DNA from: Fragilaria crotonensis
Taxonomy: Eukaryota > Bacillariophyta > Fragilariophyceae > Fragilariales > Fragilariaceae
Assembly (NCBI GenBank): GCA_022925895.1
Contig: JAKSYS010000757.1
Span: 1 to 27,270 of the forward strand
Reading direction: 5' to 3'
DNA length: 27,270 nt
Shown here: in pieces, positions 1,251 to 27,270 of the stretch
Layout of the letters: every line of letters starts with the position of its first letter
How positions within the stretch are numbered: the first letter of the stretch is position 1
Translations under genes and position numbers: made by a program
The notes under the pieces: generated by a model
Told to the model about the DNA's origin: nothing
Databases searched by the model: none
The model's input: only the letters and a program-made list of their open reading frames with translations

Positions 1251-3660
1251 TCACGATGGCTTTAACAATGTTTCATTGACAACATTTAGCGTTCGCGTTC
1301 GATTGTTTATGATATGTTCCTTGAAAGTGAGAACACGAAGCTGTGATGCTTGAGGGACTCGGCTGCATGAGACATGCAGTTGGCCGTGAGCAAAGGGATC
1401 GTGCCGCAAGTCTAGAAGCATATGCTCAATTGTTTTCCCTTGAACAATGTTTGACGTCATTGAGTAACGAGGACGGAGTGGAAATTGACGCCTTGAGATT
1501 TTCAGTGGCGACTTGGAATTGATGTTCTGTATGAAGCAAATGCGAGGAATGTCATCTTCAAGTCCGGTAGTATAGTTATAGACCGTGATGTACTTGTCTG
1601 TCATGCTTACAATGCGTACAATTGTACCATTCATTAACTTGCGCCCAAAGTTAATGCTCCTCATACACGAGTAGATGCCGTTCACTTTCAGGAGTAACTT
1701 GCTTGGAGGCATGCTATTATGCGTCATTGCATCTGCAAAATCTGCGATTATGCATTTGACGTCAGTAGGCATCTCCGACAGAATCTGGTCTGACGATTCC
1801 ATAACACGACTTTCGCCGTTAACTTTGCTTAGGAAGTAGTTGTTGTGTTCGTCTACCTGCTTGTTGGTCATAGCAACTAAAGCAGACATAATTACTGCAT
1901 CGTAGTTGTTCACGTCCGGGTGAACCCAGTCGCGCGCTGCCTGTAATTGTGTCTCTGCATCATAACACCATATGGTTTGCGGAAGGTCAACCCATTTCGA
2001 CAGACCTATTGATGTCCAACGGCCATCTGTATCTGGTACAACTGGTTGAACTTTCCCATTTCCTAAATCATCACATACTTTTGTCCATTCCTTGTCGTTT
2101 GCAGTTCGAATAGGTTGTGTAAGATGGAGGACTGTGAACTTTTGAAAAACAGGCCAAGACTTGACACTTGCATTGTAAATGTCTCAATCATCGCATGATT
2201 TGATAGGTGGTGGGATCTGACGGAAATCACCTGCCGTTATGACACGAAGACCGCCGAAAGGGCTTCCGTTTTTTCTTATATCTCTGCAAGCTCGTTCTAA
2301 TGATTCCCATATTCGACGATGCGCGTTTGGGCCTTCTTCAATAATCAGGTAATGCGTTCCGCGAATAAGAGCGGCACGTTGAGAATTGTCACCAACATGA
2401 TATTGCAACCGGTCGGCATCGTCAGGTTCAATATCCATCTTAACAATTCCGTGCATCGTGAACCCTCCACGTGCAATAGCCATTACTCCTGTTGGTGCCA
2501 CGGCAAGTGCGATCATAGACTTCCGAACTCGAATATGACCAAGAATGTAATCCAGGAGAAAAGATTTCCCGCGACCAAACGGTGCATCAATGAAGATGTT
2601 GTCCGTATGCCTGAAAATGTATTTAACAATCTTTTTTTGTTCTCTGTTAAGAACGACGCTATCAAGCATTCTCGTTATAGCGTCAATATTGTACTTTGTC
2701 TTCTCGAGCTCAGCCTCAGCAGGTGCTTTTGGTAATGGAAGGCCATAACCTTCCATTTCCAGATTGTTGTCAACGAACATTTCTTGAATTGCTTGTAACA
2801 GATCTTGTTGGATATCGTACGGCATATCGTAAAACGTGAACTGGTACAGCAAAGCCATCATAGGTTTACCTTGACAAACGGGTGTAATCATGTTGCGTGC
2901 TTGATAGAAATCCAATGACATGTATACAGCATACTTGATGAAATTTGCTTTCGATTGAGCATACTTTTGGAGGAGAACCATTACGAATAGGCGCCAAAGC
3001 TTGTCTGAGACAATCAGGTTTGCGATAGCTTCCTTCATAATCACATCAAATTCAGTGTTATTGGATACGATGCTCATGGCAACGCAGGCGTCATGACATG
3101 TGTCATGAACATTGCCGTTGGCAGTCCGTGCATCTACCCAAGAGCGTGACGGGTAGTGTCGAAGTAACATGCGTAGGTAATACAAATCACCGCATGCAGG
3201 GGATACAAACTTCATCCGGTTGATCGTTTGTGTTAAAGACGATGTTGTCTTCCGTCTTGAATACACAAACAACTGCATGTCTTGTTTACGCTGAAGAACC
3301 TCGCTGCGTGGTATAAAAATTTCGCCCCTAAGGCTCTTGGTAGACCTACGTTCAACATGTTCAACCACATAGGTGTCGAAGAACTTCTCTAACGTCAACA
3401 TGTCGAATTCTTCTCCTGCTGGGCGGTTCCAATAGATGTCCTGCGCACTAACTTTGTTGGCAATCATCTCTTCCATGCTGGTAATATTGTTTGGCTTAAA
3501 ATGGACCACCTCATTTCCTGGAAGTTCAATATCAATCACGTGGATGCCTGGTTGATTTTGTGAAGTCCGGTAACCGAGAAACTTCCATGTTGCTTGCGTT
3601 GCAGGAATGCAGTGCATGAGCTCAAATCGGTTGATTTCATTCTTTTCGTATAACGTGAAA
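1251..3660 (-). pseudogene. Helitron RepHel, C-terminal part: PIF1-type helicase, interrupted by TGA
   Basis: This is the helicase half of a Helitron rolling-circle transposase, which would unwind DNA during transposition. Numbered from the ATG at 3617, the Walker A loop is G348-R349-G350-K351-S352 within DAPFGRGKS, read from 2562-2576. It is followed by a LIIEEG Walker B region (EE where DE is usual) and GDFRQIPPP. The same frame stays open to 1251 except for one TGA at 2184-2186. Beyond the stop come LTQPIR and the motif VI-like stretch HGQLHVSCSRV, so the domain is complete apart from that codon. The upstream part NEINRF..IPATQATWKFLGY is the usual link between Rep and helicase. The frame is joined to the Rep part through a run of seven A that appears one base short (3661-3667). 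A product from this copy is unlikely. Identification as a Helitron helicase is firm. Confidence 0.9.
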
Positions 3661-3667
3661 TTTTTTT

Positions 3668-5835
3668 CATTTCTTCCTTCACACGTTCCCGCACAATATT
3701 AGGGATTCGGGAGTCCATCTCGTTATCGACAAATGTTGAGACATTTTGAACTTGGAGACGTACGTTGCCCATGTAAATATACTTGAACAAATATTCAATA
3801 ATGAAGACGTCCGAACAGATTTCTGTCTTTTGAATAATGAACAGCATCGAATGTCAGAAATACGCTTGGCATGGATGACAACAATGCCTCGTCTTACATT
3901 AACATGACAGTTGTACTTTGTGATCATGTCGAGAACGCACAGAACGATGCGCCGATCCTCCTCATCAAGACGTTTGTACAAAGGGTACCCATGATCGCCA
4001 ATCTGATACGTTGGATTAAGCTTTTTTGGGTAAAACAGACAACACGGCTTTCCATCTTTCAAGCATAGGTCTCGTTTACAATGATGGGTCATGAACGTTT
4101 CTAACAACTTCATTTCCTTTTGTGTCTTACATTGCGTGTAAGAGGTCGTAATCATCCGATTGATTTCATCAGCCGTTAACCTATCACCTTGTAGCCTATA
4201 TACAATATGTGCGTGAGGATGTCCTCGCCATTGAAACTCGACAACACTGATGATGTATACAGCTTCCCGCTCTTCAAAAAACACCCCAGCACGCAAGTCA
4301 TCCAAGAACAAAGCCAGCTTTTCCTTAAACACACGATCTTCCACAACCATATTGTCTTCCACGTATGGGGTGTTACTGGTACTGTCACAAAATTCCAACC
4401 AAGTAGGTGATGTTGTGAAGGTTGTAAACAGATGAGGACCTCCTAGCTTAGCAGCAGTTGTCATCGCATCAGCAAACTTTAGCATCTGGCTTCGTGGTCC
4501 ACCAGGATAACTTGACGGCAAATACGTATAGCCAGGAAGGTATTTCAAGTCGCTTGCTGTGAACGTTTCGTTTGTATCCTCATGATGATGATCATGACCT
4601 TCGATGATAAGAGATTCAAAGTTAACGCGTTCTTTGATGTCTTCCGGCAATGCCTCAAGATATGACACCTTAGCTTGTTCGTCCTCAGACAGTAAGTTAA
4701 TCGCCATTTCTCTTTGCCTTATCATATTGACCGCCGTGTAGAGTGCACCTTCAACAACACTTCTTGGAGCCCTCTTCAATAGTGTGTTGTTTTGCCGAAG
4801 GTAGTCAAGTGTGTTGTGTTGATCACGTAGAAATTGTTCCAACACCCATGCCTGGGAAAGCCGACCTGCGTGTGAAATAATAGGACTATGCAGCAGTAGA
4901 TACTTTGTGTATTCATGGAGAGTAATGCCGTTCTTTGTATGTAACTTGGTGAAGATTGATGTGCCGTCTGGCAAATGACCCCAGCCAATTTGCCCATCAA
5001 CAAAAAGCAAAGGATAAGCAAGCGTCTCCCAGAACCCGCTTTGGTAGTGAATTGTATTCGACAATCTGTATGCTTCAGATTTTCGCTTTGGAATAACTGT
5101 TGCAAACAATTCCGTATTGTCATTCCGATGCATCGTACTGTGAACTAATGCCAGCTCCTCACTACTCAATCGTTTCTGTTCCATGTGCTTCGAACGATGC
5201 GTAAAATTAAACTTAATGGCTTCGATAGCGCTGTCTTGCCCCATACTCATTAACGACAGTGCAAAGGGATTGAACCGCTGTAAATAGTCCGAAATTGTTG
5301 CTGCCCATGACTTTGCTTGTGTTATATGGCTAGTAGGCCAATAATCTTCCGGAAGATTATCAAATTCTTGTAGTTGCAATGATGTATCATTAATCCATGC
5401 GCGCAGAGGCCCACCGACATCTCCGTTCAAAATCCTTGTGTAGGTTTGCCCGCAACAGCGAAGGTGAGCTGGCTGTGAAGGCATAAACATTCCACCACGA
5501 ACAACACTTCCAGGCGATGAAAATCGCAACGTATTGTTAACGATACGTGACCATGGTCCAAACCATTTGTTGGTGTACACGGACATAAGCTCTTCTGGGA
5601 TCTCAAAGCATTGACTGTCAAGAGAAGTTAGCATGCCCTTACCACAACAAAATCCAGCTGATTCATGAGCATATAAGAGGAAGTTGTTATCGCAGTACTT
5701 GCATAACTTTGCTGGTTTCACATTAACTGGCTCGAGACGCTTTTTGAAATTAACGGGACGACGTCTTGTATTGGGATTACGCTCTCTATAGCGCTGCTTC
5801 CTCTCACGATCAAGCTGACGAATGCGATCAATCAC
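3668..5835 (-). pseudogene. Helitron RepHel, N-terminal part: HUH Rep nuclease
   Basis: This encodes the Rep nuclease half of a Helitron transposase, which nicks and joins DNA strands in rolling-circle transposition. Near the N-terminus is a zinc-binding-like CKYC...FCCGKG cluster. The Helitron-like domain follows (LGGPHLFTTFTTSPTW). Counting from the GTG at 5835, H541-A-H543 within RGHPHAH is the metal-binding HUH motif (4207-4221). The catalytic two-tyrosine motif YLFKY is in another frame, with its Tyr codons at 3791-3793 and 3779-3781. A 61-nt GT-AG intron (3837-3897) between them restores the frame exactly. The GTG at 5835 is not a real start: the same frame runs upstream into Arg-rich repeats until a TGA next to a six-A run at 5903-5908. 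The reading frame therefore originally began further upstream. Confidence 0.9.
3837..3897 (-). other. 61-nt spliceosomal intron in the Helitron Rep gene
   Basis: On the minus strand the segment starts GTAAGA directly after codons for YNCHVN and ends TTCAAAAG directly before codons for TEICSDV. Both joints fall between codons. Its length of 61 nt is not a multiple of three, so unspliced RNA leaves the frame before the catalytic tyrosines. Removing it gives the order usual in Helitron Rep proteins (YNCHVN, then EICSD, then YLFKYIY). No alternative single-base indel yields as good a join, because the intervening 20 codons have no counterpart in the family. Confidence 0.75.
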
Positions 5836-13030: not shown

Positions 13031-13659
13031 ATTCCTCTGAGAACCTCTACCTTTGATCGACAACGTCAGGTTTTGCGCTCATTTCGGGCAAGCGGTAGCG
13101 GATGATATTGATGGATGTCCTCGGTGGCGTAAAGGACGTTATTCAATGTGCTCGTCGTGTTTCTCCCATAAGTCTCCAACCTCCAACCCCGTCTGTCGAT
13201 GGTATGAATAGGCTACTGGAATCGTCCAGTACCTGTACCGGTCAGATACAACAAATAACCTCATTAGTAGAAGTGCGAGTGATGTGACGTACAGACGAAA
13301 TTGATTGCACAACTGAATACTGAGAGTACAATTCCAAAGATTCCAACAACCCAAGAATCCATCGGAGGCCAAAACTAATGTCAGTCATTAAAGGCCAGTA
13401 TTAAGAACAGAGAAGAATGGACCAAAGTCCATGATAAATGATCAGAGAAGAATGGGAACGAGTCCCAAGGAAAGAAGAACAAGACTAAGGCCATTCCTTG
13501 TACGGAAAACATTGTTTTTGTTGAAGGAGAGGTTTTTATCAGCCATGCCCTTATATGAAAACAGGTTTCACAAGAAGGTCTAACAAGAAGGAAACGTTCA
13601 TTGTTTTCAGTCGGACGAGTGGTGTTCAATTCGCACAGTTTTGGTACACATTGTGCCTT
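13031..13659. other. ATG12 upstream region and flank of the gypsy insertion
   Basis: No gene is seen. The motif CAGAGAAGAATGG occurs twice (around 13407 and 13442). At about 13486 the sequence TAAGGCCATTCCTTGTACGG resembles the start of the repeat pair found at 21388 and 22001, so this flank may hold a diverged copy. Regulatory elements for ATG12 would lie in the first part but none can be named. Confidence 0.4.
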
Positions 13660-14112: not shown

Positions 14113-14571
14113 ATGACAAATAAAAATAAAGGTAAGCGCAAAGCGTCTGAAAATTCGTCTGCGGAACATGTCGCATTCCGTCAGTCGAACCTCGCGTTGA
14201 ATCCGCCGTCGATTTATTTCGATAGGCCCAAGAAATCGACAGAGAAATCTGACGATGAGGGCAACTATAAAAAAATTGATGTCCCGATTGAAGCTGGAAA
14301 TGCGAACTCCAAAAATATCGAAAAGAGAATTCGTTTGTTTGGAGACTACGACACCTCGCCGGAAGCGTGGGTGAAGTGGCGCATAGAGCTCGAGGAAGTC
14401 ATTCGTGACTATCCGCTCGAGTCCGGCGAACAAAAAACGTCTATGGCGCTTGCACTACTTAAGGGCAGTGCAAGAGACAAATTCCAGCAAACGTGGCGTA
14501 GACTCGATACGGAGAACGTGGCGGGTCCGCACGACAGAGGAAGACTCCAAATGAGATTTTCCAGCTGGTGA
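14113..14571 (+). CDS. gag: gypsy Gag, N-terminal part
   Basis: This ORF encodes 152 residues starting at the first ATG after the leader. The first 80 residues are basic and polar. Then comes a capsid-like retrotransposon Gag segment (IRLFGDYDTSPEAWVKWRI, later ALLKGSARDKFQQTW). The frame ends at TGA 14569-14571, in the middle of the capsid domain. The domain continues in the -1 frame (KTPNEIFQLVMTEVGKSYFP), which is already open before this stop. The last dozen or so residues here (GPHDRG...RFSSW) are probably out-of-frame sequence. Either a 1-nt deletion hit this copy or the element uses a -1 shift. TGA overlaps the next ATG as TGATG. Confidence 0.85.
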   Translation: MTNKNKGKRKASENSSAEHVAFRQSNLALNPPSIYFDRPKKSTEKSDDEGNYKKIDVPIEAGNANSKNIEKRIRLFGDYDTSPEAWVKWRIELEEVIRDYPLESGEQKTSMALALLKGSARDKFQQTWRRLDTENVAGPHDRGRLQMRFSSW

Positions 14572-17500
14572 TGACGGAAGTTGGTAAGTCTTACTTCCCA
14601 ATCTTGCATGCGTACCAGAAACAGGTGGTGTACATGCAGCATTACCTACGTCTTGGAAGTCATACGGTTCGTAACTTTGCTACGCGTTTACGCGAGTTAA
14701 ATAATTACTTACCGTATTTTCCACGGGAAGAAGGTAAGGCTGAACCGTCTAAATTGTCTGATGATGACTTGATTCAAATTCTCAACCAGGCGAAGCCTGA
14801 AGAATGGCAAGCGGTCATTCTTGGTGCAAATATTGAACTTTACAAGTTCGATTTTCAAGGCACTGTTGATTATTTTGAGAAACTTGAACTCAGACAGGCA
14901 CTCGAGGCCAAACGTTGTAAGGTGGATAAAACCGATAACCCTGAGGGCACGAAAAAGGGCAATTGGAACAATAAGTCCGCTGACAAAATGGCAACGGCCA
15001 AAACACAGTCGTCTAAGTATAAGAAGTGTGCGCATTGCGGTCGTACAAATCATACTACGAAAGACTGTTGGTTTAACCCTGAAAACAAAGGGAAGCAAAA
15101 ACCTGGCAAGAAAAACGTCGGTTCTACGGACCGAAATGTCTTGATGACGCAGGAGCAGTTTAACGCTATCCTTGAGCGTCTTCCACGCAACCCGAAGTCT
15201 GGCAAGCGTAAGGTCCGCGACCGCGACTTTACACCTGAGAATTCGGATGCAGAAATCGTGGAAATGTTCAGTCCAAAGACCACAATTAGCACAGTAGACA
15301 CTAAGGACGATAGTGATGCAAGTTCTATCTACTTTGGTCTATTTTCTAGCGAGATATTGCCATCCAAAGATGGCCATGGCAGCAAGAAGCAAAAACAAAA
15401 ACACAAAACCACCGAAGTCGTGGGCGAAGTGATGGGAACAGGCAAACCCGGCATCGTTCGCATTTTGCTAGACACTGGAGCATCTGCGACAATTATACTT
15501 AAGGATGCGATACGGGGCTTAACTGGACCGGTATTCAAAACATCACATACACGATGGCATACTATGGGTGGTCAGTTCGTAACTAAATTACAACGGGAAA
15601 TTAAATTCAAATTACCCGAGTTTAGTACGTCAAAGATAGTACAATGGGTGTGTCATGAGGACACACATACACTGCGTAAGAATGCACAGTATGACATGAT
15701 CATTGGTGCAGATTTACTATCAGAATTAGGTATTAAAATTAATTTCAATACGCAACGGATAGTATGGGAAGGTGTAGAAATTCCCATGAAAGAAAAACAT
15801 GTAATATCCGATCTACAGAATGCTACAGCTATCTACTACCACAGTATCGAACCTACGGTACTCAAAGAAGCAGAAGCAAGACAGAAACGTATATTGGATG
15901 CAGACTATAGTGCGTTAGATATTGATGACTACGCACACATGGAAACGCATCTAAGTAACGACCAACAAGAACAACTCATACATTCATTACAAAAGTATCC
16001 GAAGTTGTTTCGTGGAGGACTGGGCGTACTTAACGTACCTCCCGTGCATCTCGAGCTACGGCCCTTAAGTAAAGATGAGAAGCCGTATCACGCTCGTCCA
16101 TTTCCTATACCGAAGTGTTACGAGGAAACGACGAAGAAAGAAATTAAACGTCTATGCGACATTGGAGTATTAACGAAGTGCAATGACTCCGAGTGGGCGG
16201 CACCAACGTTCATACAGCCTAAAAAGACTGGTGACGTTCGAGTCCTAACGGACTTTCGTGTACTTAATAGGTACATCAAACGTAAACCATACCCCTTACC
16301 CAAGATTGCTGACCTTCTTCAGAAACTTGAAGGGATTAATTGGGCAACGGCTTTGGATCTAAGTATGGGCTACTACCATATTATACTGGATAAAGAATCC
16401 AGCTATCTATGTACGATGATTGTACCATGGGGTAAATATCGCTACTGTCGCCTACCTATGGGCTTAAACGGCAGTCCTGATATCTTTCAGGCCATAATTA
16501 ACGACATTATGGGAGACTTGCCTAATGTACGTGCGTACCTAGATGACATACTGATTACAACTGCAGGTTCCTACGCGGACCATCTTCAGCATGTTGAACT
16601 CGTACTGCAACGCCTAACAGATGTTGGCTTTGCCGTTAACTTACGTAAATCCTCGTTCGCTGTGACCGAGATTGATTACTTAGGATATTGGATTACTCGT
16701 CGCGGTATCCAACCTCAACCTAAGAAAGTGGAAGCGATTATGCGGCTGACACCACCAACTACCAAACGGCAGTTAAGACGTTTCTTAGGTATGATCAATT
16801 ACTACCGTGACATGTGGCGACGTAGAAGTCACATATTAGCACCGCTTACGGCAATGTGTTCTGCCAAAGCTAAATTTATTTGGCATGATAAAGAACAGAA
16901 AGCCTTCGAAGACATTAAGGCTATAATTAGTCGAGAGACATTACTGGCTTATCCAGATTTCTCTAAAGACTTTCATATTTATACGGACTCCAGCGATTAT
17001 CAACTGGGAGCAGTCATAATGCAAAATGACCGTCCGTTAGCCTTCTACAGTAGGAAACTTAACAGCGCTCAAAAACGTTACACGACTGGGGAGCAAGAAC
17101 TGTTATCCATAGTAGAAACGCTTAAAGAATTCAAAAATATACTATTGGGTCAAAAGCTGATAGTACATACAGATCATAAGAATCTCCTATATCAGAAAAT
17201 GTCCACCGATCGTATTATACGATGGAGACTCCTAATTGAAGAGTTTGGACCTACATTCCTACACATAAAAGGAGAAAAGAACGTCATTGCTGACGCCTTG
17301 TCACAATTAGATGCAAACTTCAATGAGAAGTTGCCTACAGAGCCTACGAATGATAGTATGGCTTATATCTTCATGACAAAGACAGATGTAAAAGAAACTG
17401 ACTTTCCGTTAAGTCCAACACTAATCGCTAAGTACCAGCGGTTAGATAACGAACTCAAACAAAGAAGTACGAAATCAAAGAGTCAGAATTTCAATACCAA

Positions 17501-18557
17501 AACAATTGAAGGAGTTGAGGTCATTACGTACCAAGGAAAAATATATATTCCTATTCAACTTCAACAACGCGTAGTTGCTTGGTATCATGAGTACCTAGCA
17601 CATCCTGGCGAATCACGTACTGAAGCAACGATACGTCAAACATGTACGTGGCCGAAATTACGTAGCCACGTTGAGACATTTTGTAAGACATGTCGTACAT
17701 GTCAGTTGTTTAAGAAACAACGGAAGAAGTATGGGCACTTACCGCCTAAGGAAGCCGAAGAACTTCCATGGTCTCGTGTCAACGTAGACTTGATTGGACC
17801 ATACGTTGTACGTACTCCAACGGCTACACATACACTCCGTGCGTTGACTATGATCGATCCTGTGACAGGATGGTTTGAAGTCATTTCAATATCAGATAAG
17901 AACGCCCATACGGTTATGGAGGCGTTTAATAATACGTGGTTAACAAGATATCCACGACCCCAATACATAGGGTATGATAACGGTACCGAATTCAAAGCAC
18001 AGTTCAAACAAATGTGCGAGAATTATGGTATGAAAGAAAAACCGTCATCTAGTTACAATCCGCAATCAAACGGTATTGTAGAACGAGTACATCAAGTACT
18101 TGGCAATGCACTTCGGACGTTCGAACTCGAGCACAAAGAACTTGATGCAAATGACCCTTGGGGGCCATTCCTAAGTGCAGCCGCATGGGCAATACGTAGT
18201 ACAGTACATACTACGTTAGATGCTACACCCGGACAGTTGGTATTTGGACGCGACATGTTGTTGCCCATCCAATTAAAGACGGATTGGGCTAGAATACGAC
18301 AACGTAAGCAAGACGTCATCAACGCTAATAATAAAAAGGAAAATGCCAAACGCATTGAACACGAGTACCGCGTTGGAGAAAAAGTCCTATTGGAAAAACC
18401 AGGACTGATTTCCAAATTGTCCGCCCCACGTACAGGACCGTATCGGATTACTGAAACCTATGCTAATGGTACAGTACGCATTCAACGTGGCATTGTCAAT
18501 GAACGTGTCAACATACGTCGACTGACGCCATATAAAGAACGCGTACCGCCCAATTAG
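14571..18557 (+). CDS. pol: gypsy Gag C-terminus plus Pol polyprotein
   Basis: An uninterrupted frame of 1,328 codons from ATG 14571 carries the whole enzyme set. Positions here count from the GTG at 14568. The capsid end comes first, then a CCHC knuckle at C154 (CAHCGRTNHTTKDC). The protease LLDTGAS has its catalytic Asp at 302. Reverse transcriptase has the YLDD active site at 657-660. RNase H has TDSS with Asp 807. Integrase has an HHCC zinc finger, then Asp 1074, Asp 1137 and Glu 1172 (spacing 62 and 34) and a GPY module at 1290-1292. All catalytic residues are present, so Pol appears functional. The frame stops at the TAG inside the polypurine tract. The domain order identifies Ty3/gypsy. 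Confidence 0.97.
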   Translation: MTEVGKSYFPILHAYQKQVVYMQHYLRLGSHTVRNFATRLRELNNYLPYFPREEGKAEPSKLSDDDLIQILNQAKPEEWQAVILGANIELYKFDFQGTVDYFEKLELRQALEAKRCKVDKTDNPEGTKKGNWNNKSADKMATAKTQSSKYKKCAHCGRTNHTTKDCWFNPENKGKQKPGKKNVGSTDRNVLMTQEQFNAILERLPRNPKSGKRKVRDRDFTPENSDAEIVEMFSPKTTISTVDTKDDSDASSIYFGLFSSEILPSKDGHGSKKQKQKHKTTEVVGEVMGTGKPGIVRILLDTGASATIILKDAIRGLTGPVFKTSHTRWHTMGGQFVTKLQREIKFKLPEFSTSKIVQWVCHEDTHTLRKNAQYDMIIGADLLSELGIKINFNTQRIVWEGVEIPMKEKHVISDLQNATAIYYHSIEPTVLKEAEARQKRILDADYSALDIDDYAHMETHLSNDQQEQLIHSLQKYPKLFRGGLGVLNVPPVHLELRPLSKDEKPYHARPFPIPKCYEETTKKEIKRLCDIGVLTKCNDSEWAAPTFIQPKKTGDVRVLTDFRVLNRYIKRKPYPLPKIADLLQKLEGINWATALDLSMGYYHIILDKESSYLCTMIVPWGKYRYCRLPMGLNGSPDIFQAIINDIMGDLPNVRAYLDDILITTAGSYADHLQHVELVLQRLTDVGFAVNLRKSSFAVTEIDYLGYWITRRGIQPQPKKVEAIMRLTPPTTKRQLRRFLGMINYYRDMWRRRSHILAPLTAMCSAKAKFIWHDKEQKAFEDIKAIISRETLLAYPDFSKDFHIYTDSSDYQLGAVIMQNDRPLAFYSRKLNSAQKRYTTGEQELLSIVETLKEFKNILLGQKLIVHTDHKNLLYQKMSTDRIIRWRLLIEEFGPTFLHIKGEKNVIADALSQLDANFNEKLPTEPTNDSMAYIFMTKTDVKETDFPLSPTLIAKYQRLDNELKQRSTKSKSQNFNTKTIEGVEVITYQGKIYIPIQLQQRVVAWYHEYLAHPGESRTEATIRQTCTWPKLRSHVETFCKTCRTCQLFKKQRKKYGHLPPKEAEELPWSRVNVDLIGPYVVRTPTATHTLRALTMIDPVTGWFEVISISDKNAHTVMEAFNNTWLTRYPRPQYIGYDNGTEFKAQFKQMCENYGMKEKPSSSYNPQSNGIVERVHQVLGNALRTFELEHKELDANDPWGPFLSAAAWAIRSTVHTTLDATPGQLVFGRDMLLPIQLKTDWARIRQRKQDVINANNKKENAKRIEHEYRVGEKVLLEKPGLISKLSAPRTGPYRITETYANGTVRIQRGIVNERVNIRRLTPYKERVPPN

Positions 18558-20277: not shown

Positions 20278-21387
20278 GGTTTTCCTATTTGCGTTAGGTA
20301 ATACTCCTATTTGCTTTCAACCAGTCAAAACTAGGGAATCAGGACACATCATTTCAGAGGGAATCCATAAAATAATCAGAATTAATTTAAGAGGAAATCC
20401 ATATAATAATCCAATTTTTTGGTAAAGGCTGACTACTACTAGTTGTGCTTGCAAGGACTGGGACAAGCAATTGTCAATAAGCAGTCAACAAAATTGATTA
20501 AATGAATTAAAATGATTGCAATGCTCAATACAACCTTTGTTGCAAAGTAGTAAACAATGAAATGCATCTGGATCCAACATACTTGGTTCCTTGACAATAG
20601 AAACAACAACAATTGCAAGAAGTTGATATCATAAGTGAGTGGCTTCCATGAACAAATTAATGTATAACAAATGACATCACACATAAAATATGTTGACTTG
20701 TGAAAGCTGCAGCATGGCATCTCAATTGCTGCAAAGTGATCAATTTTTGTATTATTAACAACTACCGGTAGTTCCTGAACAGAGGTCATTACATGGTATG
20801 GGTTACCATCTAAATTAATAGTTAACGAAACCCACCTTCTGATGAACCTCATCATCACCAGTGTCAGGTGGACAGAAATCATTGGTTACAGCAGAAAGGA
20901 AAGGAACTCATCCACGTTGTCCTTGCTTTACAAAGGAATAGAAACCACAACAGTCATGTCAGTGTCATCCATTGGAGTGCCTTGGACACAGTGTATGGGT
21001 CAACTGTTGCAAGAACCACAGTCATGAACCGAGTTGCAGCTATGTTGGCAAAGGTGGATAGCATGGTTCTGTGAACGATGAGACAACAATGCACTGCAAT
21101 CATGGCATAGCTAGAGGCAAGAACTGTAAGCTGATTCATGCATCAAAGCCTGACAAGTCAAAGCAGGATGTTTGTTAATGCTTGAGAAACAGGCACCAAA
21201 ACTCAGGATATAACAGAGACATTTTAAACTTGTAAGAATGACAGTATAAAAATGTTGAGGAACAACAGACATATTGAACAACATTTTCAAAAATATGTCT
21301 GGCATGCTCTTAAGCATCAGCAATAGGTATTATATCAACAAAGAGATAGTTAGGGGTTGACAACTGAGTACCATGCTTCACAATGCT
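20278..21387. other. 1.1 kb with no recognisable gene
   Basis: AT-rich sequence with short ORFs on both strands and no conserved motif. An ORF at 20868-21074 (plus) and its neighbour at 20842-21027 overlap in different frames, and neither resembles a known family. Probably degraded transposon sequence. Confidence 0.5.
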
Positions 21388-21580
21388 AAGGCCCTCCCTT
21401 ATACGGAAATTACCTCAACAAAAAGAAAAATGAAAAATAGATTTGTTGCTCATTTTTGGTTTTACCGCCCTTATAGTAAAACTCGACAATTTTGTTAATC
21501 ACATTAGTCAAATGGAAAATGTGTGGTCCTCCCAGCACAGAATCCTTGTGCTCAACAAAAATGGGTTTTTCCTTTTTTGC
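21388..21580. repeat. dispersed repeat, copy 1 (TAAGGCCCTCCC start)
   Basis: Begins TAAGGCCCTCCCTTATACGG and is about 80% identical over roughly 180 bp to the copy at 22001. Shared blocks include GATTTGTTGCTCATTT, CCTTATAGTAAAAC, TAGTCAAATGG and GTGTGGTCCTCC. On the minus strand both copies are open and encode a similar peptide (DSVLGGPH..HLTN and NEQQI). The TAA at the start fits a TAA target site next to a GGCC terminus, as in PIF/Harbinger elements, but no inverted partner is seen. Confidence 0.75.
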
Positions 21581-21964: not shown

Positions 21965-22000
21965 AAATGAAATCAGATTTGTTTCTGTTTTTGTCGTGAT

Positions 22001-22190
22001 AAGGCCCTCCCTTATACGGAAATTCACTCAACAAAAACAAAAACAAAAAACAGATTTGTTGCTCATTTCTGTTTTTACCGTCCTTATAGTAAAACACGAC
22101 AATTCTCTCAATCGAGTTAGTCAAATGGTAAACGTGTGGTCCTCCGAGCACGGAATCGTTGCCTTCAACAAAAATCATTTTTCCCTTGTT
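22001..22190. repeat. dispersed repeat, copy 2 (TAAGGCCCTCCC start)
   Basis: Second copy of the repeat at 21388, same orientation, 613 bp away. The first 20 bases are identical, and the body has scattered substitutions and small indels. It ends about 85 bp before the open frame of the next gene, in a pyrimidine-rich stretch (22190-22270) that could be a 5' leader. Confidence 0.75.
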
Positions 22191-22274
22191 CTATCGTCCC
22201 CCTACCATTGATTGTTTTTTTTCTTCAATCGGTGATATTTCTTCCCTCCATTACCTTTTTCTCACTCATTTTGT

Positions 22275-24079
22275 GTGTGCATTCACCTCCTCGTGACCAC
22301 TGCTGGTGTTGTCAGAGTTGCCAACAAGTTCCCTGGGGGAGCCGGTCTCCAAAAAGAGCTTCAAGGTTTTGCCAGCTTCGTATCTTTTCAAAACGCCTGT
22401 TTCCGTAATGGGACTGCGATGACAAAGATTACTCAAGAAAAGGTACTTTCTGGATGGTTTTTTGGTAATCCTGACGATCCAGACTCAGTCGGTATCAGTC
22501 AGCAACTTGTCGAGGGCACTGGGCTATTTGAACACGTGTATGACACTGAGGAAATCATGCAGCAGACAGGGAGTCAGCAGACAGGTAACACTCGCAACAA
22601 CAAGACACTGGTTCTTAAACCATTTCTTCATTGTATTTCTGGCACCAGCATATTGGTTGGCAATCAATCCAACCAAATCAATTTGGGTCTCCTTCGCTCC
22701 AGCGGACTGTCATCCCAGAAATCTATGCCAATCATGGGAAGATCCCTGCTTTCTCGTGCCCAAGAGCACATCCAGAATGGAAAAAAAGCACTGGCAGTTG
22801 TTATGAACAAGAGAAGTCCCTATGAATCATATGTTGCAACTGGCAACTTACCATCGGACATGAGTATGGACGACTACTATGTGTATGTCCGAAAACGAAT
22901 GTATGTTTCTCTTGTCACTAACGCTACTAAAACTCAGTCGGAAGGAACTCTTTTGTCAGCTTCTTCTCAAAGTATTGAAACGACAATTCCTGCAAGTGTA
23001 CAATGCTGTGATAACGCAACTGATGAGAGCTTCGACGATACTGGCAGTTTTGTCAGCTGCCATACTAGTGTCGTTGATAGTGTGGTTGAAAATGTTGGTT
23101 CTGATGAAAAATGACGAGGACTTACCCGACCACGATCCGATGTATGACATTGACGATGGTGGTCATCTCATGCCCATAGACTGGAGTTTTCCTGGCTTTA
23201 TCTCATTTGCTTTGCTTGGACCAATCGTCACCAGTGTTATGATTCCATACCGGTCAGAGTTACTCATGGCATCACTTCCTTCAGGAAACAATACAAACAA
23301 TGGACGGGCTGCGTTACGACAAAGTGCGAGAAGCATCAAACAGAAGAACAACAAGGAAGCAACAACAACTAGTATTCTAGTTCAGTAACATCAGGACCCG
23401 GGTCTGTGACAGCGGCTGTTGCTCTTTTTACTATATCACAAGAACCATCTCTCCAACAACAAATCATGCTGGTGGGCATTGCCCAATCCAAGATGCTGAT
23501 TGAACAGAGACATTCGTTCAAAATGAACGACAGAGTCATTTCATTGCATCAAAAAAAGGTTTCCGCCAAGAGAATGATGATTGACAAATTGAAGTTCATG
23601 ATAAGAAACACTCCAGCCAATGATCCTGAGCGTATGGTACTCATGCACGATCTTAAGCAGTTGAACAAGGCATTAAACGAAGCCGTGCAAAACTTGACTA
23701 GAGCTGAAGAAGAAATTGTTAAAGGCGACATGCTGGTAGCTGGTACGACAAAAGATGCCAATACATTCATCGATCTTACAATTGGCATGGTACTTGGCAG
23801 GATGCCAATGCAACCAACAACTTTGCCACACCTCAGTCGTCCAACCGGAAGAAAAGAAGAATACTTCAAGAAAGCGAAGCGGCGGCATCTGCAACATCAT
23901 GTCCAACATCCTCGTCTCTTGCTGAACAGAGCCTTGGATTTGCTCTTCCTGCCTGGCCATGTACTGCCAACATGTCACCTGATTCTCCTTGCGGTTCCAT
24001 TCAAGGAGAGAACAAAACTGAAAGCGCCGCCATACCAGACAAAGATGACGACAATGGGGACTCCAACATGAACCTTTGA
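22275..24079 (+). pseudogene. large unrecognised protein gene, broken by three frameshifts
   Basis: The family is not recognised. The first frame (22275-23114) includes VANKFPGGAGLQKELQGFAS, a low-complexity tail and an acidic end. It appears to continue at NDEDLPDHDPMYDIDDGGH in the next frame once a run of five A at about 23109-23113 is shortened by one. That frame has a hydrophobic stretch (FPGFISFALLGPIVTSVMI) and a basic segment (GRAALRQSARSIKQKN). Another shift near 23370 leads to TSGPGSVTAAV and a long charged helical, coiled-coil-like region. A last shift near 23790 gives the natural-looking tail SSSLAEQSLGFALPAW and an acidic DKDDDNGDSN end at 24079. The true 5' end is unknown: the first ATG is at 22419, and GTG 22275 merely opens the frame. 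No splice sites explain the breaks. Confidence 0.55.
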
Positions 24080-24151
24080 TAAGAATAGAGTTTGACCTGT
24101 CTGTATCATCCCAAGGATTCCGCCAATGTTTTTATCGCAGTCGCCTGCCAT

Positions 24152-24391
24152 CCCCTGAAAACTCAAGAAATTATTTGATTGGCCATTGCCATTGTGAACT
24201 CCTAAATATTCTATACGTCATCACTTTCTGTACTTAAAAATCTACTCTGTAAGTGAAGCTTATGAAGCCGGCCATGCCCCTGAAAACCTAAAAATTATTT
24301 GATTGGTCGATGTCAATCACTACTTGAGTATCGTCACATTGTCAACAATGTTGCTGAGTGTCCAACCAATCTGTGAAAACTATTTGATTGG
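24152..24391 (+). repeat. three spaced copies of TGAAAAC...TTTGATTGG
   Basis: CCCCTGAAAACTCAAGAAAT with TTATTTGATTGG (from about 24152), CCCCTGAAAACCTAAAAATT with ATTTGATTGG (from about 24277) and CTGTGAAAACTATTTGATTGG in two parts (24371-24391) recur at roughly 100-bp spacing between two broken genes. Each ends in ATTGG, the reverse of CCAAT, so they could be promoter elements for the following gene or decayed tandem repeats. Nothing else is seen in 24080-24600. Confidence 0.6.
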
Positions 24392-24600
24392 TCAACATCG
24401 ATGTCATTAATGGACAAACGGTTATACACAAATGTTTTCATAGGTGAAAACAATTCCAAATTTATAGTTCCCGCATTTCATCTCTAAGTAAACATGTTGC
24501 GAAATATTTTGGAGTTCCCTAAATCCCTTATGTAATGCTAATTGGCATTTCATCTCATTTCAAAGCACTCCCGACATTTTCACAAGCAACAAAGACCATC

Positions 24601-25093
24601 ATGGCACCTCCTCCTCCTTCTGATACTCATGCTATCCATCATGGCCAACCTCAAGCATTTTACCCCTTCATGTTACCACGGACCGCCATGGTATCATCAA
24701 TGGGGCCGTCCGTTTCCACCAGCAGTTCCGCCCGTGCAAATTGTGATAAACTTCACTGTCTATGGTGGAGTGCAACATTTCAACTCTGGTTCACTCCAAC
24801 GAGCAAGCGAGTCTAGTTGTTGTCAGGAGACCAACGACAACAAAAATGAAGAATGCAGGAACAGCAACGGGCGAGTGATTGATAACATGATGAAAGGATC
24901 TGATTGTACAGCAGATACTGCTGGTTGCAATAACAGCAGCGAGGAGGGCGATGAAAACAAACATGAATACAGCAGCGACATTGTGGAGGACAAAAGCTGC
25001 GACACTCACGACAATGCTAATAATCAGGAAGTGCTCAACAGCAAGGGGAATGGTTGCACAACAGGGATGCAGAATGAGGAGAGGAAACGCTAA
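24601..25093 (+). pseudogene. proline-rich then polar protein gene with one frameshift
   Basis: An ATG at 24601 in good context (ATCATGG) begins MAPPPPSDTHAIHHGQPQAF. Near 24675-24690 the coding quality passes to the next frame, which reads PPWYHQWGRPFPPAVPPVQI, then INFTVYGGVQHF and an Asn/Glu/Ser/Asp-rich, Cys-containing tail ending KR at 25093. One inserted base would explain the shift. No domain is recognised. It lies between the large broken gene and the AlkB gene on the same strand and may belong to the same element. Confidence 0.45.
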
Positions 25094-25307
25094 AAAAAGG
25101 ATACTACAAGCTATTCTTCAACAGGATTCTTGACATGCCTGTCAAGTGTTGTCAAAGAGGCAACTGGAGTAGGAGATTGAGTTATTGCGCGTAGCAGGAA
25201 GTGGCTGTCATCCTGTCAACAGTGGAGTCCATGGATTTTGCATAAGATGCAGAAGAATGAAACTATAGACAACAATTCTCTCACGTTTAAGTTTAATAAA
25301 GTTTAAT

Positions 25308-25907
25308 ATGAATCGTGGTGGAGTCATACAATTTTTTCCAACCATTGTTTCAAACATTCATGCGGTACAAATGGAGATGCTATCAGTCAAACAATTTTGG
25401 CAATGCAAAGTTCGAGAGTGTGCCAAGGAACCAAGGCTCCATGCATTGTTCTCGTCAAATGACCCAGACGAAGGTGGATACAAATATGGAAGGGTCACCT
25501 TGGAAAGCCACCCGCTCAATTCACTCCCAGTGATTTCGAAAGTGGCTGACAACCTTGATTCTCGTTTTCATACTGAAAACAATGTATGGAACATTGGATG
25601 CCATCTTGTTGTCTATCGAGATGGAAAAGACAGCATAAACTGGCATGCAGATGATACTCAAGGAGAAGATTTAGTTGTTTCACTTACTGTTGAATCACCG
25701 GCGGATGCTCGAACAATTTGCTTCCAGCCCGCAAATAGTGTTCCCTTGCAAGAAGGAGATGCGCAAATTGAGCTGTTTCCACTTGCATGTGATGCGTACA
25801 GCATGGATGGAGTTGTTCAACATGGCTACGTTCATGCCATGCTCAAGATGCGCCATGGAAGTGATGGAAGACGAATGACAATCATTTCATTTTTAGAAAT
25901 GGTTTGA
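25308..25907 (+). CDS. AlkB-family 2-oxoglutarate/Fe(II) dioxygenase
   Basis: AlkB enzymes remove or oxidise methyl groups on nucleic-acid bases using Fe(II) and 2-oxoglutarate. This 199-residue frame starts at ATG 25308. LVVYRDGKDSINWHADD holds the iron ligands H113 and D115. H172, 57 residues on, fits the third ligand, and R189, 17 residues after it, fits the 2-oxoglutarate-binding Arg of E. coli AlkB (H187 and R204). The second conserved Arg six residues later is replaced by F195. The upstream segment GGYKYGRVTLESHPLNSLPV fits the substrate-lid region of ALKBH2/3-type proteins. The domain ends at TIISFLEMV just before the stop, and the SRA domain begins in the -1 frame at once. The original protein was therefore probably a fusion, broken by a 1-nt loss, perhaps in the T run at 25890-25894. 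Confidence 0.85.
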   Translation: MNRGGVIQFFPTIVSNIHAVQMEMLSVKQFWQCKVRECAKEPRLHALFSSNDPDEGGYKYGRVTLESHPLNSLPVISKVADNLDSRFHTENNVWNIGCHLVVYRDGKDSINWHADDTQGEDLVVSLTVESPADARTICFQPANSVPLQEGDAQIELFPLACDAYSMDGVVQHGYVHAMLKMRHGSDGRRMTIISFLEMV

Positions 25908-26593
25908 AACAACCATGTCAAGACAATGGGATAGACGTTGAAACAATTGAAGCTCCGCCAGCAAGAGTGGAGATGTACAAATTTGGTTCCCTTGACAACT
26001 TGGTGGAAGGCAACTGTTACTCTCGAGAGTACGTTTTCAATTGCTGTGCACACCTCAATGATCGGGGCAGTGTTGCTGGCAACATGAAACTTGGATGCCC
26101 ATCGCTTATTGTCTCTCGAATGGCAGACGAAAGAGAATGCGATCACTTTCGCTATTTGACATATGTCGTTGGCTCCAACTCTCGACCAAAAGCACTTTTT
26201 TGAAGTTTCATGGACAACAAAGCAATTCGAGTGTTCAGATCTTCAAATGGAAACAGTCGACGAGGAATATATTTTCCAAAATCAAATAACAATCATGTTG
26301 TCTATCGATATGATGGTCTTTATTTTGTGTCTGGTGCAACCGATGAGAAGGGACATGAAGTTTCAAAAAGTTTGCATGGTGATGCCATTGTTTTCTATAT
26401 GATCAGATGTGAAGCCTTTGAGTGTTTGGAGCGATTGTACCAGCAATATCCAGAGATGCAGTACAGTATCTCGTGTCATGAACATCACCAACACGGTTCA
26501 AATATGCTATCGTCTGAGGAGATTTTGGTTGACATTGAAGAATTCAATGTCAACCACTTCCTAGATTGGAGCCCGCACACTGTAGGTGTTTAA
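25901..26593 (+). pseudogene. SRA-YDG domain, C-terminal half of the AlkB gene
   Basis: SRA-YDG domains bind modified cytosine in DNA by flipping the base, as in UHRF1 and plant SUVH proteins. One frame runs from about 25901 to 26593 with a single TGA at 26201-26203. Before the stop are GSVAGNMKLGCPSLIVSRMA and a region ending NSRPKALF. After it are KAIRVFRSSNGNSRRGIYFP and YRYDGLYFVSG, matching the PVRV.R...YAP...YRYDGIY core. The conserved flanks on both sides show that the stop replaced a sense codon (CGA by one C-to-T change is the simplest guess). The frame is -1 relative to the AlkB frame and overlaps its end with no room for a promoter, so both probably formed one gene. The last 60 residues are acidic and unassigned. 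Confidence 0.78.
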
Positions 26594-26696
26594 AAAGAAT
26601 ACAATTATTGTTGTATGTATTGCTTATTACAGCATTACTTAAGATCACTTAAACGGCAGATGTGTTCTTTGCAGACGGCCATTTTATTTCACGTCG

Positions 26697-27270
26697 CTAA
26701 TACGCAATATCAAAATGCGTGATCAGACGTTTCCGGAAGTCTGCCAGAGACAAGTTCCGAACAACAATTGGAACTGCAGCCTGCTCTTCCTCCTCGCTTT
26801 CATGATCATTCTCTGGATTGCTGCTGTGACTGGGGTTGTCTACCCTGACGTCGTATGAATTCTCCGCTTCTTCAATGTCACTTCCGGGACCCATCCCGGA
26901 CAAGTCGTACGTTCTCATGGCTACTGGATTGTGAAGATTGCGAATGGCCTGAGGAATTATGTAGTCATCCTCAGGACTGTGTTCTCCCAGTGGTCCATCC
27001 CAGTCACTGTTCACAGTTGAAACTCCGTTGTTCCAAGTAGTGGTGAACCCATCTGTTTCTAACAGCCAATTGTGTAGTGCACAACAAGTAAGAAAGATCT
27101 TGTCGGCATTCTCAACTCCATTCATACGGATTCCGGTCTTGAGTATCCGCCATCTTCCCTTTAGGATACCAAAAGTACATTCGACATCCTTTCTCATTGA
27201 TTCTAGCCACGACAAGAATCGAATTTCAATGCGACTACTTGTGGTTTTGATTGGTGGAACTGTGGTTGGC
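26697..27270 (-). CDS. PIF/Harbinger transposase (DDE), C-terminal part, runs off the window
   Basis: The frame is open from the window edge to the stop at 26697 (about 190 codons). MRKDVECTFGILKGRWRIL is the conserved block containing the catalytic Glu of the PIF/Harbinger (DDE_Tnp_4) nuclease. It is followed by ADKIFLTCCALHNWLLE, the typical end of the domain. The tail has an acidic EDD/EEEE region and ends RKRLITHFDIAY. The two Asp residues of the triad lie beyond the window. No stop or shift is visible, so this part may be intact. It converges on the AlkB-SRA gene with 103 bp between them, which hold no gene. Confidence 0.88.
   Translation of the reverse strand, partial: PTTVPPIKTTSSRIEIRFLSWLESMRKDVECTFGILKGRWRILKTGIRMNGVENADKIFLTCCALHNWLLETDGFTTTWNNGVSTVNSDWDGPLGEHSPEDDYIIPQAIRNLHNPVAMRTYDLSGMGPGSDIEEAENSYDVRVDNPSHSSNPENDHESEEEEQAAVPIVVRNLSLADFRKRLITHFDIAY

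What the first reader, a model, noticed from the sequence alone, without database searches (positions are those of the whole stretch)
25308..26593. AlkB dioxygenase joined to an SRA-YDG modified-base reader
Seen: AlkB ligands H113, D115, H172 and R189 are followed without a gap by an SRA core with RVFRSSN and YRYDGLY. Known: AlkB oxidises alkylated bases and SRA binds modified cytosine in DNA. Inference: the ancestral product was one enzyme recruited to methylated or otherwise modified DNA to oxidise or repair it. I know of no well-studied AlkB-SRA protein, though TET/JBP oxygenases are known to travel with fungal transposons.
Basis: partly seen in the sequence, partly recalled or inferred. 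Interest (0 to 1): 0.82.

Follow-up and report, generated by a model that had tools for sequence, protein, structure and literature searches.

The report
Transposon-borne AlkB–SRA fusion in a diatom
A jumping gene in what looks like a diatom carries the broken remains of a fused protein that would both recognise chemically marked DNA bases and oxidise modified bases, possibly to escape being silenced by its host.

Summary
AlkB and SRA are really there, but not in one frame: the AlkB frame ends at 25907 and the SRA lies in another frame with a TGA at 26201-26203. The window copy is a pseudogene. Continuous AlkB-SRA frames exist elsewhere in the genome, on C413 (628 aa) and C180 (682 aa), so the inferred ancestral fusion holds.

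The larger finding is the context. The gene sits between the two convergent genes of a PIF/Harbinger transposon: left end 22000-22018, second ORF 22251-23989, AlkB-SRA about 24716-26593, transposase from 26697 to the contig end. A complete relative (C786) has only about 80 bp there. A second Harbinger family carries relatives on C656, C71 and C603; C603 has the SRA alone, fused to the second ORF. Six further copies, both intact ones included, lie in no recognised Harbinger.

Conserved residues and pairwise dN/dS suggest past constraint. Best reading: a reader-eraser kept by transposons against silencing; binding, substrate and effect are untested. Parallel: TET/JBP-carrying fungal Harbingers (PMC12730594).

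The parts
22000..22018 (+). Left end of the PIF/Harbinger element: TAA (target-site trinucleotide) then terminal repeat GGCCCTCCCTTATACG
   Evidence: Same 16 nt, next to TAA, at both ends of the complete C786 relative
22251..23989 (+). Harbinger second gene (ORF2), frames broken
   Evidence: tblastn of the C786 ORF2: 58% over q8-540 and 63% over q551-609; frames. No Pfam match at E<=0.1 for the C786 ORF2
24167..24402 (+). Three 27-nt direct repeats holding ATTTGATTGG, upstream of the AlkB-SRA gene
   Evidence: family D1; the same 10-mer occurs three times on the other strand upstream of the C413 copies
24716..25300 (+). N-terminal extension of the AlkB-SRA gene, frames broken
   Evidence: tblastn with the C413 protein q26-201, 27% identity; stops
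25308..25907 (+). AlkB (2OG-Fe(II) dioxygenase) frame; H113, D115, H176, R189
   Evidence: PF13532 E=2.8e-8; 62% identical to C413 over 201 aa; residues
25886..26593 (+). SRA domain and C-terminal tail in a different frame; TGA at 26201-26203
   Evidence: PF02182 at 26006-26359, E=1.9e-7, 36.1 bits, 1 TGA; 42% to C413 over 238 aa
26697..27269 (-). C-terminal part of a PIF/Harbinger DDE transposase; runs off the contig end
   Evidence: PF13359 E=7.8e-10 for 26697-27215; 80% aa identity to C786; DNA match 26677-27270 to C786 at 82%

Best explanation
The window holds a decayed PIF/Harbinger DNA transposon carrying a third gene, an AlkB dioxygenase fused to an SRA modified-base reader, between its two standard convergent genes. 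Shown: the element's left end, the gene order, the fusion in intact copies of the same genome, conserved catalytic residues in those copies, mostly low pairwise dN/dS among divergent copies, and a second Harbinger family with the same gene or with its SRA alone. Inferred: the SRA part docks on modified (most simply 5-methyl) cytosine and places the AlkB part on the same DNA, where it oxidises a methylated base on or near the transposon, so that the element loses or changes the mark that silences it.
For: Fusion in one frame at C413 and C180. Window gene between Harbinger ORF2 and transposase, against about 80 bp between the two frames in C786, a 4.28-kb element with identical 16-nt ends and TAA on both sides. 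Second family: C656 has ORF2 (82% to the C603 ORF2 over 258 aa) followed on the same strand by AlkB-SRA; C71 has AlkB-SRA facing a transposase with the family's terminal repeat beyond it; C603 has ORF2 fused to SRA inside 37-nt terminal repeats with TTA. These three group together in the AlkB-SRA tree, support 1.00 (joint) and 0.994 (SRA). HxD, third His and both Arg are all present in C413a, C180 and the window. Over all readable copies: HxD 4 of 7, third His 7 of 8, first Arg 4 of 7, second Arg 6 of 7. Pairwise dN/dS 0.20 (window/C410, AlkB), 0.15 (C578/C603, SRA), 0.22 (C413a/C578, SRA), against 1.05 for the decayed C413 duplicate. The genome has C5-methyltransferase matches (13 places). 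Published parallel: Harbingers with TET/JBP (PMC12730594: abstract, passages, section 4.2).
Against: Only 4 loci (window, C656, C71, C603) tie the family to Harbinger; 11 other contigs with the C603-type family show ORF2 and transposase without SRA or AlkB in the stretches held, and transposase matches number 113 and 149 in the two searches. The other copies (C413a, partial C413b, partial C578, C180, AlkB-only C410, partial C65), both intact fusions included, are in no recognised Harbinger: C413a and C578 face helicase genes, C180 lies between what look by eye like host genes; C410 and C65 have only short transposase fragments near by, not in the tail-to-tail order. C603 kept SRA without AlkB. 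All three Harbinger copies with AlkB are broken. dS is infinite in 16 of 40 comparisons and high in most of the rest, so dN/dS is only indicative; SRA ratios inside the C603/C656/C71 group are 0.38-0.55. HxD is changed in C656, C410 and C65. C786's ORF2 shows no Myb/SANT match. No activity was measured, and action of AlkB on 5mC in cells is not established (recalled).
Confidence: 0.5

Rival explanations
1. Host repair gene, captured now and then. AlkB-SRA is a diatom repair protein whose SRA brings AlkB to methylated DNA to remove stray alkylation such as 3-methylcytosine made by DNA methyltransferases; Harbingers picked up copies by chance as passengers.
For: The two intact fusions are not in recognised Harbingers; C180 lies between frames that look by eye like host genes. 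The AlkB part resembles ALKBH3, weakly (profile E=0.014). The three Harbinger copies with AlkB are broken. Repair of 3mC by ALKBH2/3 is established knowledge.
Against: Two Harbinger families carry it on the transposase side of ORF2, and C603 keeps an open ORF2-SRA frame in an element with intact ends and a 464-aa transposase frame. The family is multicopy, and the genome has 6 other PF13532 places.
Confidence: 0.3
2. Reader for the transposition machinery. The SRA part chiefly steers Harbinger ORF2 or transposase to methylated target or donor DNA; AlkB is dispensable.
For: C603: SRA fused in frame to ORF2 without AlkB, in the best-preserved SRA-bearing element.
Against: AlkB residues are all kept in C413a, C180 and the window, with low AlkB dN/dS in 8 of 9 comparisons with finite dS (0.09-0.31; the ninth is 1.05); 11 related contigs show no SRA next to ORF2.
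Confidence: 0.12
3. Chance nesting: an unrelated gene or retrocopy inserted between the two Harbinger genes in the window, with no functional tie.
For: The window is rich in transposon remains and the copy is dead.
Against: A like arrangement recurs in a second Harbinger family, with one AlkB-SRA group. None of the 25 longest of 97 inverted pairs in 23900-26760 looks like the ends of a nested transposon; the nearest, I19, is 17 nt at 76%.
Confidence: 0.08

Closest known systems
TET/JBP-carrying fungal Harbinger (PHISTA) and other DNA transposons (Kojima 2025, PMC12730594; abstract, passages and section 4.2 seen)
   Same: A DNA transposon of the Harbinger superfamily carries a 2-oxoglutarate dioxygenase as a third gene, proposed to undo silencing
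   Different: Here the enzyme matches AlkB (PF13532), not TET/JBP; it is fused to an SRA reader; the genome looks like a diatom's; the target site is a TNA trinucleotide, not TA
UHRF1/UHRF2 SRA proteins
   Same: SRA by profile; the RVFRS and YRYDG segments align with UHRF2 (E=4.2e-5)
   Different: Joined to AlkB; no RING, PHD, Tudor or SET family at E<=0.01 in the C413 or C180 protein
ALKBH2/ALKBH3 alkylation repair dioxygenases
   Same: HxD...H...R-x5-R (motif recalled, residues) and the YRxxxDSxxWHxDD stretch shared with ALKBH3
   Different: Weak match (best PDB profile E=0.014 for ALKBH3); SRA fused at the C-terminus. ALKBH2 itself was not among the PDB hits listed
VANC anti-silencing proteins of Arabidopsis VANDAL transposons (PMC5735166, abstract seen)
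   Same: Transposon-encoded factor that causes loss of DNA methylation on transposons
   Different: VANC is sequence-specific (abstract); that it is neither an oxygenase nor an SRA protein is recalled
Sola1-1_Ec32 ParB-methyltransferase accessory protein of Ectocarpus (PMC12477816, passages seen)
   Same: Stramenopile DNA transposon with a DNA-modifying accessory protein on the strand opposite the transposase
   Different: A writer (methyltransferase), not an eraser; other transposon superfamily

Membership tests
AlkB dioxygenase (PF13532) | Profile match over curated cut-off | tested here: met
   Window 34.6 bits and C413 34.8 bits, cut-off 31.2. C180 gave no PF13532 match at E<=0.01 but is 56% identical to the window AlkB over 196 aa
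AlkB dioxygenase (PF13532) | HxD...H iron ligands and R-x5-R (motif recalled) | tested here: met
   All present in C413a, C180 and the window, in the window with the last Arg beyond the frameshift. HxD is changed in C656, C410 and C65; first Arg in C656, C71 and C65
AlkB dioxygenase (PF13532) | 2OG/Fe(II)-dependent oxidation of methylated bases | not testable with these tools
   Needs enzyme assay
SRA (PF02182) | Profile match over curated cut-off 30.7 | tested here: met
   48.6 bits C413, 43 C180, 45.3 C578, 35 C603; window 36.1 bits across one TGA
SRA (PF02182) | Base-flipping pocket binding modified cytosine | not testable with these tools
PIF/Harbinger (PHIS) | DDE_Tnp_4-type transposase | tested here: met
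   Window 39 bits, C603 80.1 and C786 69.6, cut-off 24.8
PIF/Harbinger (PHIS) | Terminal inverted repeats with 3-bp T-N-A target duplication | tested here: met
   C786: TAA on both sides, identical 16-nt ends. C603: TTA on both sides within C|TTA|G, as PMC4482050 gives for NuwaII (passages), 37-nt ends. Window: left end only, the right end lies beyond the contig
PIF/Harbinger (PHIS) | Second, convergent gene with Myb/SANT domain | tested here: inconclusive
   Convergent second gene present; no Pfam match at E<=0.1 for the C786 ORF2
TET/JBP transposon dioxygenase | TET/JBP domain | tested here: not met
   Pfam scan of C413 and C180 proteins returned no TET/JBP family at E<=0.01
UHRF1-type maintenance factor | RING/PHD/Tudor with SRA | tested here: not met
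   No such family at E<=0.01 in the C413, C180, C578, C603 and C207 frames scanned

The most novel reading that the evidence does not exclude
A new kind of transposon anti-silencing enzyme: a single protein that reads the host's own DNA mark with an SRA domain and erases or rewrites it with AlkB, acquired by at least two Harbinger families of a diatom, in parallel to the TET/JBP genes of fungal transposons, and later reduced in one lineage to an SRA fused to the transposon's second protein.
Probability: 0.4. Interest if true: 0.8.

Novelty: new variant of a known kind. Interest (0 to 1): 0.64.

Why it matters
If true, transposons have captured a DNA-base oxygenase outside the TET/JBP family, and with a built-in reader. 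It would offer a natural, testable reader-eraser protein (two intact copies in one genome) for asking whether AlkB enzymes can edit regulatory DNA methylation, and it would show the silencing arms race in diatoms.

Tried and rejected
Rejected: a continuous frame in the window. Thought unlikely: a nested transposon with its own terminal repeats around AlkB-SRA (none convincing among the 25 longest of 97 inverted pairs shown; I19, 17 nt at 76%, lies nearest to both ends).

Wider spread: viral contigs gave no relative. Prokaryote contigs gave none with one alignment and two with the other: an SRA frame of 231 aa and a 291-aa frame with an SRA-like start; by eye no AlkB in those frames or the neighbouring frames listed. 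Phage records gave AlkB-like matches only, in 6 records. These collections are not built for eukaryotes, so absence says little.

(no MT-A70 match) is uninformative, as the tool itself says. C413:1-10000 showed one inverted pair of 18 nt or more (26 nt, 73%, arms 1548-1573 and 8693-8718 of L007), too weak to call an element end, so the vehicle of the C413 copies, if any, is unknown. C656's element ends were not found. C71's left end and ORF2 were not found in 50800-58089.

Paper searches for an AlkB-SRA protein (listings only, capped) showed none in their listings; the library lacks most subscription papers. Catalogues of eukaryotic DNA-methylation domain fusions by Iyer, Aravind and colleagues were not read (recalled only), so the fusion may be listed there. 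PMC3265494 and PMC9998398 were searched for terms only.

Full report
What was checked. Pfam confirms both. AlkB: PF13532 with E=2.8e-8 in frame 25308-25907. SRA: PF02182 with 36.1 bits at 26006-26359, over its cut-off of 30.7, read across one TGA. They do not form one frame. The AlkB frame stops at 25907, while 'FRNG', which follows the first Arg in intact copies, is read in another frame at 25892-25903, and the SRA frame has TGA at 26201-26203. Upstream, the N-terminal part at 24716-25300 is also broken. The third iron ligand is H176 rather than H172: the YVH histidine is kept in 7 of 8 readable copies (the exception is the decayed C65), while the column of H172 is H in C413a, C413b and the window and another residue in C180, C578, C656, C71 and C410.

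The ancestral fusion is real. Six places in the genome (62.1 Mb, 881 contigs) match SRA, and a search with the C413 protein gives 20 matches on 9 contigs: C413, C180, C732 (the window), C578, C410, C656, C603, C65 and C71. C413:2956-4842 is a 628-aa frame passing both Pfam cut-offs. C180 is a 682-aa frame passing the SRA cut-off, its AlkB part 56% identical to the window's over 196 aa, without a PF13532 match at E<=0.01. The genome has silicon transporters (19 matches, best E=4e-193), so the host is likely a diatom; its name was not given.

The surroundings. The transposase fragment at 26697-27269 (minus strand) is a DDE_Tnp_4 protein, 80% identical to one on C786. C786 holds TAA, GGCCCTCCCTTATACG, ORF2 (frame 1495-3354 of L063), transposase (frame 3437-4999 of L063, minus strand, open at the end of that stretch), CGTATAAGGGAGGGCC, TAA: 4,279 bases between the TAAs. 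By DNA, window 22000-23988 matches C786 1271-3320 (74%) and window 26677-27270 matches 3474-4076 (82%). So 153 bases of C786 stand against 2,688 bases in the window (23989-26676), which hold the AlkB-SRA gene. The window's left end is the same sequence at 22000-22018. Its right end lies beyond the contig. Among the 25 longest of 97 inverted pairs in 23900-26760 none looks like the ends of a nested transposon.

A second Harbinger family. C603 has a 464-aa transposase frame and a convergent 525-aa frame whose first ~297 residues are the family's ORF2 and whose rest is SRA, inside 37-nt terminal repeats (97% complementary) with TTA on both sides. The flanks C|TTA|G fit the NuwaII site in PMC4482050 (passages). 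C656 has the same ORF2 (82% over 258 aa) followed on the same strand by a broken AlkB-SRA, then the contig ends. C71 has a broken AlkB-SRA facing a transposase of this family, with the family's terminal repeat (3 mismatches in 26, TTA included) beyond it. Eleven other contigs with this transposase family (C428, C228, C394, C301, C109, C246, C447, C517, C807, C328, C107) show ORF2 without SRA or AlkB in the stretches held. C603, C656 and C71 group together (support 1.00 in the joint tree, 0.994 for SRA). That C603 arose by deletion of AlkB from a C656-like element is an inference from this.

Copies outside Harbinger. C413 (one intact, one partial), C578 (partial), C180 (intact), C410 (AlkB only in the stretch held) and C65 (partial). 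C413a and C578 lie tail to tail with a helicase family that has 58 matches in the genome, a lower bound. C180 lies between frames that I read by eye as a Yip1-like and a SEN1-like protein (recalled, not tested). C410 and C65 have short transposase fragments of the window's type near by, not in tail-to-tail order. So Harbinger is one vehicle, not shown to be the only home.

Was it functional? With a Nei-Gojobori script of my own, dS is infinite in 16 of 40 comparisons. Of the 24 finite ones, 18 have dN/dS of 0.14-0.40, one 0.09, four 0.40-0.55, and the decayed C413 duplicate 1.05. Inside the C603/C656/C71 group AlkB gives 0.20 (one pair, 72 codons) and SRA 0.38-0.55. HxD is intact in C413a, C413b, C180 and the window; it is changed in C410 (HxN), C656 (YxD) and C65. 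This fits past constraint and later loss in many copies. Neither test separates selection for the host from selection for the transposon.

Mechanism. Shown: anatomy, fusion, position, signs of constraint. Established knowledge: SRA domains of UHRF/SUVH bind modified cytosine; AlkB proteins oxidise N-methylated bases. Inferred: SRA brings the oxygenase to marked DNA; oxidation weakens silencing of the element. The genome has C5-methyltransferase matches (13 places, some from one gene), so 5mC is a sensible mark but was not measured. A repair role (3mC left by methyltransferases) is the main rival.

Comparison with what is known. Fungal transposons of 11 lineages, Harbinger among them, carry TET/JBP genes thought to counter silencing (PMC12730594: abstract, passages, section 4.2). 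That paper's main text has no occurrence of AlkB, SRA or diatom. Ectocarpus Harbingers have two tail-to-tail genes and a Sola element has a ParB-methyltransferase (PMC12477816: passages). Hence: a known kind (transposon-borne base dioxygenase), with a different enzyme family, a built-in reader and a new lineage. My searches showed no AlkB-SRA protein in print (capped listings), within an open-access library only.

Noticed in passing
window 2184-5835 (-): Helitron remains: Helitron_like_N (E=7.9e-24) and PIF1 helicase (E=8.2e-30) in separate frames
   Followed up: no
window 14568-18557 (+): LTR-retrotransposon-type frame with protease, reverse transcriptase, RNase H and integrase domains, 1329 aa without a stop
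   Followed up: no
window 21387-21560 and 13486-13504: Further copies of the Harbinger left end (TAA + terminal repeat), one about 600 bases before the described element and one diverged
   Followed up: partly
window 24173, 24297, 24382; L007 913, 1068, 1218: The 10-mer ATTTGATTGG (CCAAT on the other strand) occurs three times upstream of AlkB-SRA in the window and three times, opposite strand, upstream of the C413 copies; possible promoter or binding repeats. It was absent from the C656, C71, C578, C180, C410, C65 and C786 stretches scanned and occurs once in L010
   Followed up: partly
L009, L007 and 58 matches over many contigs: A large family of SF2 helicase genes (DEAD + Helicase_C), several contigs with more than one, tail to tail with AlkB-SRA on C413 and C578; nature unknown
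   Followed up: partly
L005 1366-2862 (-), C207: A 498-aa frame with SRA and no other Pfam family at E<=0.01, unlike the AlkB-SRA family (24-38% identity in SRA); perhaps the host's own SRA protein
   Followed up: no
L008 5381-5797 (-), C180: A second, partial copy of the N-terminal region (38% over 149 aa) of the intact C180 AlkB-SRA gene lies upstream of it
   Followed up: no
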